From NCBI RefSeq assembly GCF_003730195.1, contig NZ_QWGG01000001.1, forward strand, positions 124,001 to 188,000: 64,000 bases of DNA, in the 5' to 3' direction. Below, piece by piece: positions 7,311-34,016 of this stretch; position 1 is the stretch's first letter; each line of letters begins with the position of its first letter. This stretch comes from Halosimplex salinum (GTDB lineage Archaea > Halobacteriota > Halobacteria > Halobacteriales > Haloarculaceae). Below the pieces are notes generated by a model that had not been told where the DNA came from, did no database searches, and was given only the letters and a program-made list of their open reading frames with translations. The position numbers and the translations under genes are program-made.

Positions 7311-8452
7311 CGTTCGAGCCGATCGACCGCGTCGCGTCGGTGCCGCCCTCGGGCATCCGCAAGTTCTTCGAACTCGCCGAGGAGTACGACGACATCATCT
7401 CGCTGGGGGTCGGTGAACCCGACTTCGCCCCGCCGTGGGCCGCCCGCGACGCCGCCATCGCCTCGCTGGAGCGAGGACAGACCTCCTACACCGCCAACCG
7501 CGGGATGCGCGAACTCCGCGAGCAGATCGCCGTGGACGCTCGCGAGCGCTACGGACTGGACTACGACGCGGACGAGGAGATACTCGTCACCTCGGGCGCG
7601 AGCGAGGCGGTCGACCTGGCCTTCCGGGCGTTCCTCGACCACGGCGACTCGGTCGCCATCGCCCAGCCGTGTTACGTCTCCTACGTCCCCGGTGCGCGCT
7701 TCACCGGGGCCGAGGTGGTCGACGTGCCGACCCGCGCGGCGGACGAGTTCAAACTCACCCGCGAGGTGCTGGAGTCGTCGGGCGCCGCCGACGCGGAGGT
7801 GCTCGTCATGTGTTACCCGAACAACCCGACCGGCGCGACGATGACTCGCGAGGAACTCGAACCGGTCGCCGAGTTCGCCCGCGAGCACGACCTCCTCGTC
7901 TTCTCCGACGAGATCTACTCCGAACTCAGCTACGAACACGACCACGCCTCGATCGCGACGCTCCCGGGCATGCGCGAGCGGACGGTCGTGTTCAACGGCT
8001 TCTCGAAGGCCTACGCGATGACCGGCCTGCGACTCGGGTACGCGCTCGCGCCGCCCGAGGCGACCGAGGCGATGAACCGCATCCACCAGTACACGATGCT
8101 CTCGGCGCCGACCACGGCCCAGTACGCGGCGGTCGAGGCGCTGGACACCTGCGACGACGACGTCCGGGAGATGCGCGCGCAGTACGACCGCCGCCGGAAC
8201 TTCGTCCTCTCTCGATTCGAGGAGATGGGGATCGACTGCTTCCCGGCGGCCGGCGCCTTCTACGCGTTCCCGGAGTGCCCGTGGGACGACAGCGACGAGT
8301 TCGCCGAGGCGCTGCTCGAGGAGGAACGCGTCGCGGTGGTCCCGGGAGACGTCTTCGGTGCTGGCGGCGAGGGACATCTCCGCGTCTCCTACGCGACCAG
8401 TCTGAGCGATCTGAAGACGGCGATGGCGCGCATCGAATCGTTTATCAGTTGA
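7307..8452 (+). CDS. PLP-dependent class I/II aminotransferase
   Basis: A 381-residue fold-type I aminotransferase. Landmarks are ISLGVGEPDF near residue 30, YPNNPTGA near 170, FSDEIYSELSY near 200, and the PLP-lysine motif NGFSKAYAMTGLRLGY near 230; the C-terminal arginine region is GHLRVSYATS. It transfers amino groups to 2-oxo acids; the amino-acid specificity (aspartate, aromatic or other) cannot be read safely. The ATG overlaps the Lrp stop, forming a two-gene unit. A second aminotransferase with the same PLP motif lies at 35007-36158. Confidence 0.9.
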   Translation: MTFEPIDRVASVPPSGIRKFFELAEEYDDIISLGVGEPDFAPPWAARDAAIASLERGQTSYTANRGMRELREQIAVDARERYGLDYDADEEILVTSGASEAVDLAFRAFLDHGDSVAIAQPCYVSYVPGARFTGAEVVDVPTRAADEFKLTREVLESSGAADAEVLVMCYPNNPTGATMTREELEPVAEFAREHDLLVFSDEIYSELSYEHDHASIATLPGMRERTVVFNGFSKAYAMTGLRLGYALAPPEATEAMNRIHQYTMLSAPTTAQYAAVEALDTCDDDVREMRAQYDRRRNFVLSRFEEMGIDCFPAAGAFYAFPECPWDDSDEFAEALLEEERVAVVPGDVFGAGGEGHLRVSYATSLSDLKTAMARIESFIS

Positions 8453-24020: not shown

Positions 24021-24236
24021 TTTAGTGTGCCAGACGGCACTCTCCGGTGGGAACGCACGACCGCAAATCTGACTCGTCGCGCGATTGCGCGCTCGCGGTT
24101 TCACCGCTCGCGCAATTCGAGGCCTCTTTCGATGCCTCGCGCGACTCGGGATTGCGGCCGTGTTCGCGCCGATCTGCGGGTGCGCATCGCGCACCCCGCC
24201 ACGGCGCACACACGCACTGCGCGGTCTCACGACCGC
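24021..24236 (+). promoter_or_regulatory. Promoter and hairpin-rich leader of the rpsO operon
   Basis: A weak TATA-like TTTAGTG starts at 24021. Downstream of it are three hairpins: ATTGCGC/GCGCAAT (24084-24090 with 24110-24116) enclosing GCGGT/ACCGC (24095-24099, 24103-24107); GGGTGCGC/GCGCACCC (24178-24185, 24189-24196); and GCGGTC/GACCGC (24221-24226, 24231-24236). A leader of some 220 nt is unusual in haloarchaea, where many mRNAs are leaderless, and could mediate ribosomal-protein feedback; that is inference. Confidence 0.45.
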
Positions 24237-30685: not shown

Positions 30686-32596
30686 TCAGTCCTCGACGAA
30701 CGCGGCGGAACTACCGAGCTCCTCGTCGATCTCGGCGTCGGCCATCTTCTCGACGAGGGCGTCGATGACGGTCTCGCGCATGCCGCGGACGAACTTGATC
30801 GACCCGACGACGAGGTGGCCGCCGCCGCTGACGCCGCCGCCGTGGACCTCGTCTTTCAGCTCTTCGACCATGTTCGGGATGTCCAGGCGGACGCCGTCCG
30901 ACCGGAGGACGGCGAAGTCGGGCCCGTAGCCGATGGTGATCACGGGGTCGCCGGTCTCGGCGACCTTGTTGTCGTGGATCTTGCCTGTGGTCTTGCCCGG
31001 CGCGGGGTAGGTGAAACGGTGGGCGTGGTTCTCGACGTCGATGCGGTAGAGGTGGGCGTCGTTGTCGAGGCGCTCGTGATCGACGTGTGGCATCGCGGCG
31101 TCGAGCTGTCGCTCCACGTCTCGCTCGGCGCTGGTCGCGAGGAAGTCGACGAGTTCGCGGTGGCGGGCCTCGTCGTCGCAGTCGACGTTGAGCGCGTCGG
31201 TGATGAGCTGGCCGCCGTCGTCGTACTTGAGCCAGAAGGTGGCGTAGTCGAGCGCCTCGCCCACGTCGCGCAGTTCGGACTCGTCGTAGCCCTTCTCGTT
31301 TGCGAGCGCGAGGTAGTCGTCCATCGCGTCGGCCTCCGAGCGGTCCGAGAGGCCCGCGACGGCCGGGACGTGGCGCAGTTCGTCGGTGATGTCCGGGTCG
31401 ATCATCCGCGCGAGTTCGACGCACATCATGCCCGTCGTGATGCGGTAGTCCTCGTCGTGGAGGTAGGGGTTGACGTGCTCGTCGAGGAGGTCCTCGACGG
31501 CGTCGGGGTCGGGGTGGTGGTGGTCGACGACGACGATGGGCACGTCGTAGTGCGCGAGGTTGCGGTAGGCGGGCGTGTCCTCCTCGGTCGACCCGTTGTC
31601 GAGCATCAGGAGGAGCGGGAGGCGCTGTCCGTGGCGCTTGCGGTCCTCCAGCGCGAAGTTCAGGTCGCGGGTTACGTCCTCCATCTCGTAGTACGGCGCC
31701 TTGCTCGGCAGGCGCTTGAGGAGGTGCTGGGCGGCGTCGGGGTCCTCGTAGGTGTCCTCGATGAACCGCTCCAGCGCGACCTGCATCGGGACGCTCGCGC
31801 AGATGCCGTCACCGTCGGCGTGGTGACGCATCCGGATCGGGCGCCCTTCCAGCACGGTGCGCCGGAGCCGGCGAGCGACCGCTCGCAGGTCGTCGTGGAG
31901 TTTCTCGAAGGCGTCCCACTCGACGAGCGGGTCGGGGTCGTGGGGCTCGGCGAGGTCGTCGAGGTCGTCGGCCTGTTCCTCGCGGAGCGTCGCCGCGTCC
32001 TCCCCTTCGAGGACGGTGAGGTCGTCGATCTCGACCTGGATACTGCCCTCTCGGGTCTCGACGTAGCCGTCGACGCGGACTACGTCGTCGAGCTGCACGT
32101 CCTCGTAGGCACGCACGCCCGCCTCCTCGAAGGCGGTGCAGGGCGCGATGCCGGTGGCGTCGCGGACCTGGAACACGGTCGGGCCGCCGGTCTGTTTTAT
32201 CTGGACGACGACGCCCTCCAGCGTGATCGACTCGCCGACCGAGTCGCCGAGGTCGGCGACGGGGTGGCTGTCGCGCGCGATCGTTTCGAGCGTGTACTCG
32301 GGGACGTCGACCTCGTTGAAGGCGAGGTCGCCGTTCTCGCGCACTTCTTCGAGTTCGACGACGAGTTCGTCGCCGACCTCGTAGCTACCCAGTAGATTCG
32401 ACCCGTGGATGAGGCCGGACACGTCCTCGGAGAGGTCGACGAAGACGCCGTACTCGACGACGCCGTTGACCTCCGCGAGATACAGGTCGCCCTCCGAGAC
32501 GTACTCGAAGTCACAGTTCGCAGCGAGGTCGTAGACGGTGGTCCCACCGTCGGGGACCGCGACGCCGGAATTCCCGGCGTCAGGTACAGGAGTCAT
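30686..32596 (-). CDS. DHH-family phosphoesterase/exonuclease with S1 and OB domains (RecJ2-like)
   Basis: A 636-residue protein. Residues about 35-95 are an S1 RNA-binding domain (SEGDLYLAEVNGVVEYGVFVDL, GLIHGSNLLGSYEVGDEL), 115-190 an OB-fold (ITLEGVVVQIKQTGGPTVFQVRDATG), and the rest the catalytic part: motif I RHHADGDGICA, motif III VVVDHHHPDPD and C-terminal GGGH in VSGGGHLVVGS, all intact. Such proteins degrade 5' ends of single-stranded DNA or RNA. The start ATG at 32596 lies about 25 bp after a TATA-like GCTTAAACTG, suggesting a leaderless mRNA. In Haloferax volcanii the corresponding gene also lies near a JAMM gene. Confidence 0.88.
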   Translation of the reverse strand: MTPVPDAGNSGVAVPDGGTTVYDLAANCDFEYVSEGDLYLAEVNGVVEYGVFVDLSEDVSGLIHGSNLLGSYEVGDELVVELEEVRENGDLAFNEVDVPEYTLETIARDSHPVADLGDSVGESITLEGVVVQIKQTGGPTVFQVRDATGIAPCTAFEEAGVRAYEDVQLDDVVRVDGYVETREGSIQVEIDDLTVLEGEDAATLREEQADDLDDLAEPHDPDPLVEWDAFEKLHDDLRAVARRLRRTVLEGRPIRMRHHADGDGICASVPMQVALERFIEDTYEDPDAAQHLLKRLPSKAPYYEMEDVTRDLNFALEDRKRHGQRLPLLLMLDNGSTEEDTPAYRNLAHYDVPIVVVDHHHPDPDAVEDLLDEHVNPYLHDEDYRITTGMMCVELARMIDPDITDELRHVPAVAGLSDRSEADAMDDYLALANEKGYDESELRDVGEALDYATFWLKYDDGGQLITDALNVDCDDEARHRELVDFLATSAERDVERQLDAAMPHVDHERLDNDAHLYRIDVENHAHRFTYPAPGKTTGKIHDNKVAETGDPVITIGYGPDFAVLRSDGVRLDIPNMVEELKDEVHGGGVSGGGHLVVGSIKFVRGMRETVIDALVEKMADAEIDEELGSSAAFVED

Positions 32597-32620
32597 ATGA
32601 TCCCGATACCGCTCCGACCG

Positions 32621-32630
32621 CAGTTTAAGC
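32621..32630 (-). promoter_or_regulatory. TATA box of the DHH/RecJ2-like gene
   Basis: On the minus strand GCTTAAACTG lies about 25-34 bp before the ATG at 32596, so the transcript is probably leaderless. The structured repeat begins about 18 bp further upstream. Confidence 0.55.
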
Positions 32631-32647
32631 TTCGGAAACTCGCTCGA

Positions 32648-32777
32648 CCATCTTTTTCCCGGCCGGGTGTCCTCGCGCCTTCGGCGCTGCGGGCACCCGG
32701 CCGGCAAAAACATGGGTGAAAAAGGCGCGGCCTCACTCCGTTCGGCCGCGTGAATCGCGCTCACTGCGTTCGCGCGA
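32648..32777 (+). repeat. Three-hairpin structured repeat, left copy
   Basis: The element begins CCATCTTTTTCCCGG and forms hairpin 1 with CCGGCCGGGTG (32659-32669) and CACCCGGCCGG (32694-32704). A 20-nt linker at 32705-32724 (CAAAAACATGGGTGAAAAAG) follows. Hairpin 2 is CGCGGCC/GGCCGCG (32726-32732, 32744-32750) and hairpin 3 TCGCGC/GCGCGA (32755-32760, 32772-32777). The A5 and T5 flanks of hairpin 1 can also pair, broken by two mismatches. An inverted copy lies at 33329-33442. Confidence 0.85.
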
Positions 32778-32852
32778 ATGCTACGTACAATTTGCGTCTC
32801 TTGCAATGTAGTCCTTCCTGGACATTCAGTTGATGGTAAAATCGCTATTAAT

Positions 32853-32859
32853 ATCACCT
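32853..32859 (+). promoter_or_regulatory. TATA box of the island ORF
   Basis: ATTAATA within GCTATTAATATCACC lies 23-29 bp upstream of the ATG at 32882, the spacing expected for a leaderless haloarchaeal transcript. Confidence 0.5.
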
Positions 32860-32881
32860 GTACTGAAATTAGATACTGGTC

Positions 32882-33208
32882 ATGATGCGAGTAGACCGTC
32901 CGATAGGTGAGACTGAACGCCTCGTCAAGGATGCGATGCGTGCCGCCGGTATCGCGGATCGGAAGATCGGACGCGACGCCCGCGGACGGATTGAGGGCGT
33001 GAAGACGGCGATCTCGGTGACCGGAATCGTCCTGGCTGACATTGCGACACTGCCCGAACGGAATGACAGCTGCCACGTCTGCATCGTCGGTCGGTACAAT
33101 TCGCGGTCACAGATCCCTTCTCTGCTGGGACGACAGTCACCGAAGATAACCGAGGAAGTGAGATCGACCCTACGCGGGAAAGCCGGAAACGATCTTACAG
33201 TTCTGTAA
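32882..33208 (+). CDS. Small protein encoded in an AT-richer island, function unknown
   Basis: A 108-residue ORF (MMRVDRPIGETERLVKDAMR, IEGVKTAISVTGIVLADIA, CHVCIVGRYNSRSQIP). It is less acidic than the neighbours and lies in a stretch that is visibly richer in A and T, between two inverted copies of a structured repeat. A TATA-like box sits 23-29 bp before the ATG, matching a leaderless transcript. There is a CHVC pair but no known domain. It may be a gene of a small mobile element or a degraded fragment; an antisense ORF of similar length exists but has no promoter of this quality. Confidence 0.4.
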   Translation: MMRVDRPIGETERLVKDAMRAAGIADRKIGRDARGRIEGVKTAISVTGIVLADIATLPERNDSCHVCIVGRYNSRSQIPSLLGRQSPKITEEVRSTLRGKAGNDLTVL

Positions 33209-33328
33209 TGTTGGGGCTGGTAGACTGTCCGCCGCTCTCAAGCCCTTCAGAGACCGTCGTTGCTAGAACTGTCTGTGCGAGATGTATCCTCTGCGCTCAA
33301 CGATAGGTGCTTCACCTGTATTGAGCAT

Positions 33329-33442
33329 CCGCGCGAGCGAAGCGAGCGCGGTTCACCGGACGCGACCGAAGGGAGCGTCCGGCTTTTTCACCCATGTTTT
33401 TGCCGGAGGGGTCGCTACGCGACCCCTCCGGGAAAAAGATGG
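33329..33442 (-). repeat. Three-hairpin structured repeat, right (inverted) copy
   Basis: Read on the minus strand this copy has the same order as the left one: CCATCTTTTTCCCGG; hairpin 1 of 13 bp with a 3-nt loop (33403-33415 with 33419-33431); the identical 20-nt linker (33383-33402); hairpin 2 of 8 bp (33356-33363 with 33375-33382); and hairpin 3 (33329-33334 with 33346-33351). All three stems differ in sequence from the left copy yet remain complementary. Confidence 0.85.
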
Positions 33443-33452
33443 TTTGGAAAGG

Positions 33453-33461
33453 CTTGTTATG
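33453..33461 (+). promoter_or_regulatory. TATA-like box of the JAMM-ribL pair
   Basis: CTTGTTATG lies 22-30 bp upstream of the JAMM gene ATG, suggesting a leaderless transcript whose promoter directly follows the right copy of the structured repeat. Confidence 0.45.
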
Positions 33462-33482
33462 CGCGCTGCCCGAGGCAGTGAC

Positions 33483-34016
33483 ATGGGACTGTTCCGTTCG
33501 GGCGAGGTGGTCGGCATCGCCGAAGGGGCGCTGGAGTTCGCGCTCGAAGCGTCGGAGGACGCTCACCCGGACGAGTACATGGGCTTCCTGCGCGGCGAGG
33601 ACGCCCGCAAGTTCGACCTCGACTACGAGGGCACGGTCCTCACCGACATCCTCGTCATCCCGGGGACCGAGTCGAACCCGGTGAGCGCCACAGTCGACTC
33701 CAGCATGATCCCCAACAGCTCGCGGGCCGCCGGCTCGATCCACTCTCACCCCAACGGCGTCCTCCGACCCAGCGACGCCGACCTCCAGACGTTCGGCAAG
33801 GGGAAGGTCCACGTCATCATCGGGGCTCCTTACGGCAAGACCGACTGGCAGGCCTTCGACCGCAAGGGCAACCCCGTCGACCTGCCGGTGCTCGACATCG
33901 AGATGCCCGAAGACGAGTTCTTCGACTTCACGCAAGACGACATCGACGACGAGCTCCTCGACGAGGGCGTCGACCGCCGTGCCGACGGCACCGGTGACGA
34001 GTGGGGACAGCGATGA
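33483..34016 (+). CDS. JAMM/Mov34-domain metalloprotease (archaeal desampylase-like)
   Basis: A 177-residue zinc isopeptidase-type protein. The JAMM signature is [16 protein letters not shown] (H-x-H-P...S-x2-D) near residues 83-98, and the upstream catalytic glutamate is probably in [10 protein letters not shown] near 32. Archaeal members remove ubiquitin-like SAMP modifiers or act on sulfur-carrier proteins; which applies here is unknown. H. volcanii has two, and the one beside a recJ and a ribL gene (HvJAMM2, from memory) would correspond. The stop overlaps the next ATG (ATGA). Confidence 0.87.

What the first reader, a model, noticed from the sequence alone, without database searches (positions are those of the whole stretch)
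32648..33442. Island bounded by inverted copies of a covarying three-hairpin element
Two inverted elements (32648-32777 and 33329-33442) share an identical 20-nt linker and A5/T5 flanks, but all three hairpin stems differ in sequence while staying complementary. That is covariation, so pairing and not sequence is selected. Between them is an AT-richer 0.55 kb with a TATA box and a leaderless-type 108-residue ORF. Each element abuts the promoter of a divergent gene (RecJ2-like and JAMM). It could be a small mobile unit with structured ends, a REP-like family, or a shared promoter-upstream DNA structure.
Basis: seen in the sequence. Interest (0 to 1): 0.78.

Follow-up and report, generated by a model that had tools for sequence, protein, structure and literature searches.

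The report
Dispersed archaeal hairpin caps on genes

Summary
32648-32777(+) and 33329-33442(-) are two of roughly 65-70 copies in this Halosimplex genome. The family recurs in 83 of 394 sampled Halobacteria, mainly Haloarculaceae, and in none of 312 sampled genomes elsewhere in the phylum. Core: CCAYCTTTTTC-hp1-CAAAAACRTGGGYGAAAAAG-hp2(-GTGAACC-hp3). Stems covary strongly. The core never lies inside a predicted gene. Its 5' end points at the neighbouring gene and starts within 5 nt of a stop codon, at some tRNA 3' ends, or just outside a divergent promoter. Orthologous sites often keep an element, but stems at one site resemble each other hardly more than random family members do. The inverted pair is not a mobile unit: each copy caps its own promoter, and the DNA between them differs in every Halosimplex examined. 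Best reading: a bidirectional terminator/insulator repeat. T5C, a 95%-efficient Haloferax terminator, occurs on both strands; the inward strand carries two U5 tracts within 18 nt. Stems are overwritten by copying among family members. Function and spreading machinery are inferred; Y1 transposases do not track the family.

The parts
32648..32777 (+). Element copy 1 (three hairpins), 5' end facing the HAN nuclease promoter
   Evidence: (CM hit 125.6 bits)
32648..32715 (+). hp1 of copy 1 (CCAT-C-TTTTT-C stem; branched top)
32652..32658 (+). CTTTTTC (T5C) reading away from the gene
   Evidence: sequence; motif from PMC7237163
32705..32724 (+). Conserved linker; its complement carries CTTTTTC-ACCCATG-TTTTTG, i.e. 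T5C plus a second T5 reading toward the gene
32725..32751 (+). hp2 of copy 1
32755..32777 (+). hp3 of copy 1
33329..33442 (-). Element copy 2, 5' end facing the JAMM promoter
   Evidence: (120.7 bits)
33392..33442 (-). hp1 of copy 2 (simple stem class)
33383..33402 (-). Conserved linker of copy 2
33355..33383 (-). hp2 of copy 2
33329..33351 (-). hp3 of copy 2
30686..32596 (-). Hef-associated nuclease (HAN) gene; TATA/BRE-like stretch about 32623-32639, element begins 51 nt upstream of the start
33483..34016 (+). JAMM (Prok-JAB) gene; BRE/TATA-like stretch about 33445-33460, element begins 40 nt upstream of the start
32793..33293 (+). Variable cargo block with the 108-aa ORF (32882-33208); not part of the element

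Best explanation
A dispersed, modular structured repeat that caps transcription units. SHOWN: the copy number; the conserved architecture CCAYC-T5C-hp1-A5-linker-A5-hp2(-hp3); strong covariation; outward orientation; placement directly after stop codons or some tRNA 3' ends, or just outside divergent promoters; persistence of many sites across Halosimplex with stems of little shared ancestry. INFERRED: it works as a bidirectional transcription terminator/insulator. Reading out of a gene, RNA polymerase meets CTTTTTC a few bases after the stop codon and releases the mRNA. Reading in from the other side it meets hp2 followed by UUUUUCACCCAUGUUUUU, two U5 tracts, and stops before it can run antisense into the gene or through its promoter. 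In the window the two copies would shield the HAN and JAMM promoters from the variable DNA between them. INFERRED: the family spreads by an unidentified ssDNA- or recombination-based route and stems are overwritten by copying between copies, so linkers and pairing persist while stem sequence does not.
For: Placement: within 5 nt of a stop in 24/33 (Halosimplex) and 14/30 (other genera) against 0.9 expected; 25/33 divergent-start copies at 20-60 nt; none inside predicted genes. tRNA 3' ends at L012 and L108 by ARAGORN; L074 and L096 by tRNA-like flanks, with unclear ARAGORN boundaries. T5C terminated 95% of transcripts in a Haloferax volcanii reporter, with TC and termination at C in the intergenic motif (PMC7237163); T5C explains why C5 and C11 stay C.C mismatches inside hp1 (91/94 and 77/94). 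aCPSF1 needs two U-tracts of at least 4 U for efficient binding (PMC8716108); the inward strand has two U5 tracts in 18 nt, nearly invariant. T5 within 20 nt of ordinary stops is rare, 2.2%. Covariation. Stem turnover: orthologous sites 0.60, same-genome other sites 0.62, random 0.56. Shared modules: one 35-nt hp1 at five places in four species.
Against: No transcript data were available, and termination was measured in Haloferax and Methanococcus, not here. The generic terminator scan found none at 32500-33600 (its loop limit is 8 and hp2 loops are larger). Right-hand genes are not consistently oriented toward the element (Halosimplex 28 toward, 36 away; other genera 38 toward, 15 away), so incoming transcription is not demonstrated. 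Mobility machinery was not found. Sites without the element exist for many genes (34/88 stop-type, 28/44 promoter-type ortholog sites lack the core), so it is dispensable there.
Confidence: 0.5

Rival explanations
1. Selfish REP/BIME/BOX-like mobile DNA that inserts by a hairpin-recognising single-strand mechanism at preferred targets (TWCTAA|A and promoter edges), with no host function; structure is kept because the enzyme needs hairpins.
For: Strong target signature: aromatic last residue (mostly TAC/TTC) in 29/47 against 57/675 background, TAA stop 29/47 against 14%, and the aromatic C-terminus is generally conserved in element-free families, so it predates the element. A at -1 in about 80% of both site classes. 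Lineage-specific copies such as L011, L041, L044. Few single-sided changes (5 against 130 double) suit DNA hairpins.
Against: Y1_Tnp (PF01797) is absent from G005, G009, G012 and G020, which carry copies. No transposase was evident between the paired copies at HAN-JAMM. Stem sequences are not conserved as in a recently amplified element. The T5C motifs on both strands are not explained.
Confidence: 0.3
2. Covariation is mutational: quasi-palindrome correction by template switching keeps arms complementary without selection for a structure.
For: Changes are almost always double-sided; loops also vary.
Against: Stem classes differ in length and branching between orthologous sites, and identical modules recur at unrelated loci and species, which needs copying between loci. 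Degenerate copies that lost pairing exist. The single-stranded linker is conserved too.
Confidence: 0.1
3. A structured mRNA 3'-UTR or small RNA element acting post-transcriptionally (stability, processing).
For: Stop-adjacent copies would be in 3' UTRs; the fold is very stable.
Against: Promoter-adjacent copies point away from the gene and would not be in its transcript; no Rfam family matched; wobble pairs are under-used relative to shuffles.
Confidence: 0.08

Closest known systems
SPRITE repeats of Streptococcus pneumoniae (PMC3049150)
   Same: Dispersed terminator-like repeat enriched near gene 3' ends
   Different: SPRITE is an AT-rich terminator-like repeat in a bacterium; this is GC-rich, has two or more hairpins, archaeal T5C on both strands, also caps promoters, and its stems are replaced between species
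BOX elements of S. pneumoniae (PMC3049150)
   Same: Modular structured intergenic repeats with variable internal modules
   Different: BOX has terminal inverted repeats and target duplications, and its modules are sequence-defined; here linkers are conserved and stems are not
REP/BIME with RAYT (PMC3733652, PMC2817692)
   Same: Extragenic, palindromic, dispersed, mosaic
   Different: No GTAG/CGTC tag at the hairpin foot; no association with Y1 transposases; fixed orientation to the neighbouring gene
PATEs of Haloquadratum walsbyi (PMC3119063)
   Same: Haloarchaeal transposase-free elements with palindromes
   Different: PATE palindromes are sequence-related to IS605 ends; these are gene-edge elements with non-conserved stems
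Archaeal T5C / U-tract terminators (PMC7237163, PMC8716108)
   Same: Identical T5C motif and paired U-tracts
   Different: Ordinary haloarchaeal terminators are T-stretches, not dispersed covarying multi-hairpin repeats

Membership tests
REP/BIME (RAYT-associated) | GTAG or CGTC tag next to the palindrome | tested here: not met
   Conserved columns of A1 and A3 are CCA..TTTTT and CAAAAAC.TGGG.GAAAAA; no GTAG/CGTC tag
REP/BIME (RAYT-associated) | Y1 (TnpA_REP) transposase in genomes with the repeat | tested here: not met
   PF01797 absent from G005, G009, G012, G020, all with copies; present in G010 and G015, which have no exact match
PATE / IS605 ends | Sequence-conserved near-terminal palindromes | tested here: not met
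   98 distinct hp1 sequences in 106 copies; stems at one site hardly related between species
MITE / BOX | Terminal inverted repeats with target-site duplication | tested here: inconclusive
   Empty sites are diverged; no duplication seen
SPRITE-like mobile terminator | Dispersed, terminator motif, enriched at gene 3' ends | tested here: met
   T5C on both strands. This is a functional analogy, not sequence kinship; mobility was not shown
Archaeal U-tract terminator | T5C motif close downstream of the stop codon | tested here: met
   CTTTTTC or a close variant in nearly all copies, usually within 5 nt of the stop at stop-type sites in Halosimplex
Archaeal U-tract terminator | Termination activity in vivo | not testable with these tools
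   No transcriptome available
Bacterial-type intrinsic terminator | GC stem, loop 3-8, then T-run | tested here: not met
Rfam-described RNA | Match above gathering score | tested here: not met
   Only a tRNA and the S15 leader in the window

The most novel reading that the evidence does not exclude
A new class of archaeal genome element: a bidirectional transcription insulator that marks the borders of individual transcription units (after stop codons and tRNAs, and outside promoters), is held at fixed sites over genus-level time, yet has its palindromic stems repeatedly replaced as modules by copying among family members, so that structure is inherited by site while stem sequence is not.
Probability: 0.35. 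Interest if true: 0.82.

Novelty: new variant of a known kind. Interest (0 to 1): 0.66.

Why it matters
Dispersed structured repeats are well known in bacteria (REP, BOX, SPRITE) but poorly described in archaea. This family has an unusually clean natural covariation record, a sharp positional rule, and a testable function as border terminators in genomes where terminators are hard to predict. It is also a system for asking how palindromes are rewritten while staying palindromic.

Tried and rejected
(1) Composite mobile island bounded by the pair: rejected. (2) RAYT/Y1 transposition as the current driver: no association. (3) Known RNA family: none. (4) Elements as synteny breakpoints: by hand count the gene to the right is still adjacent in about 40 of 100 site-species comparisons against 59 of 95 ordinary gaps, not controlled for gap length and with some false negatives, so not claimed. 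(5) Insulation from incoming transcription tested by the orientation of the right-hand gene: no consistent overall bias. (6) Element donating the TWC-TAA gene ending: rejected, element-free families mostly have the same aromatic C-terminus. (7) Element as a promoter using TWCTAA as TATA: spacing differs between site classes. (9) Literature: haloarchaeal repeat searches found PATEs only; the library lacks most subscription papers, so prior description cannot be excluded.

Full report
Observation. Each folds into three hairpins, far more stable than shuffles as RNA and as DNA.

Family. The linker has 50 matches (up to 3 mismatches) in this 5.07-Mb genome and none for the reversed control. A covariance model from 31 copies gives 110 hits at E<=0.01, many of them antisense shadows; I estimate about 65-70 true copies. 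All seven other sampled genomes of the genus carry 21-41 exact pattern matches. Contig lengths and record titles identify three of them as Halosimplex pelagicum, H. aquaticum and H. carlsbadense, so the window is Halosimplex. Across Halobacteria 83 of 394 genomes have exact matches, mostly in the window's own family, sporadically in others; among 312 sampled genomes elsewhere in the phylum there are none, and the reversed control gives two hits.

Anatomy. The shared core is CCAYCTTTTTC - hp1 - CAAAAACRTGGGYGAAAAAG - hp2; hp3 after GTGAACC is usual in Halosimplex and often missing elsewhere. On A1, 94.7% of pair cells are standard pairs (shuffled 77.9%, slid 41-50%), with 130 double-sided and only 5 single-sided changes. 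Position 4, its partner, and the Y of GGGYGA covary three ways: T-A-T in 82 copies, C-G-C in 7, few mixtures. Two C.C mismatches flanking the T5.A5 pairs are conserved (91/94 and 77/94), so the 5' arm is constrained as sequence too. A sister subfamily has CCCACTTTTT...CAAAAACTTGGGGAAAAAG at the same kind of site. Extra hairpins are inserted in some copies.

Placement. No core copy lies in a predicted gene. When the left gene runs toward the element, the element starts within 5 nt of its stop in 24/33 (Halosimplex) and 14/30 (other genera), where uniform placement predicts 0.9. When the left gene is divergent, 25/33 copies in Halosimplex lie 20-60 nt upstream of its start, and the flank logo shows TATA- and BRE-like stretches next to the element. 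Copies also begin just after tRNA 3' ends: L012 and L108 are clear by ARAGORN; in L074 and L096 the flank is tRNA-like but the ARAGORN boundaries are unclear. Adjacent genes end in TAC or TTC followed by TAA far more often than background (aromatic last residue 29/47 against 57/675; TAA 29/47 against 14%). Element-free families mostly have the same aromatic C-terminus, so it was there first. Gene calls here are from a simple codon-usage caller of my own.

Evolution. At 24 sites compared across six Halosimplex genomes, 54 of 88 stop-type and 16 of 44 promoter-type ortholog sites carry the core, at the same few nucleotides, while flanking gene ends are mostly 85-98% identical. Yet hp1 at the same site in different species is 60% identical in its first 10 nt, compared with 62% for other sites in the same genome and 56% for random pairs (pairs are not independent). 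Identical hp1 modules recur at unrelated loci and in different species. Decayed copies occur. So sites persist and stems are replaced; selection on pairing, copying among copies, or both are needed.

The window locus. HAN-JAMM lacks detectable elements in the other genera examined apart from one decayed-looking and one intact copy in close relatives (G014, G023); where the gene pair was resolved elsewhere the gap was mostly 94-218 nt, with one of about 1.2 kb. In Halosimplex the JAMM-side copy is present in most species and decayed in G006; the HAN-side copy is intact in several and decayed in one. Whatever lies between differs in every species: ORF108 here, a 735-aa protein with PAS-like sequence in G005, other ORFs elsewhere. 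ORF108 occurs at unrelated places in G004 and G007 in a block of about 500 nt with no element in the 3.3-kb stretches examined. The pair is therefore two promoter caps around a variable site, not a transposon.

Mechanism. In Haloferax volcanii a T stretch is the intergenic termination motif, with a conserved TC and termination at C, and T5C gave 95% termination in a reporter; hairpins can contribute (PMC7237163). In Methanococcus aCPSF1 binds two U-tracts of at least 4 U (PMC8716108). The element carries TCTTTTTC reading out of the gene and, on the other strand, hp2 followed by CTTTTTCACCCATGTTTTTG reading in. This accounts for the conserved mismatching C residues, the second invariant A5, the fixed orientation and both site classes. 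T5 within 20 nt of ordinary stops is rare here (2.2%).

Known systems. It works most like pneumococcal SPRITE and BOX repeats (PMC3049150). It fails tests for RAYT-type REPs (no tag, no Y1 association) and for PATEs (stems not conserved). Target duplication could not be resolved. No earlier description was found, in a library that lacks many journals.

Noticed in passing
L001, L016, L029, L245, L247, L305, L332, L336: One or two extra 11-nt units CCATCTAGTTT / CCATCTCGTTA stand directly before CCATCTTTTT in several copies.
   Followed up: no
all copies; e.g. 32652-32658 and 32718-32724: CTTTTTC can pair imperfectly with CAAAAAC (two C.C mismatches) or perfectly with GAAAAAG in the linker, so two alternative folds are possible.
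   Followed up: no
L096 about 7461-7753: An intact tRNA-Arg is followed about 220 nt later by what looks like a partial copy of a tRNA 3' end that abuts an element, resembling an integration scar.
   Followed up: no
24046-24163: S15-Halobacteria ribosomal protein leader (RF03143) above gathering score.
   Followed up: no
L035, L036, L165-L167, L222, L320: Extra hairpin module CGTCAGAGC...GCTCTGACG inserted after GTGAAAACA between linker and hp2 in several species.
   Followed up: partly
L223, L262, L315, L336: Other hairpin cassettes nested inside hp1 of some copies.
   Followed up: no
32882-33208: ORF108: accessory gene with 86-92% identical homologs in two other Halosimplex at different loci; no Pfam, PHROGs or NCBIfam match.
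   Followed up: partly
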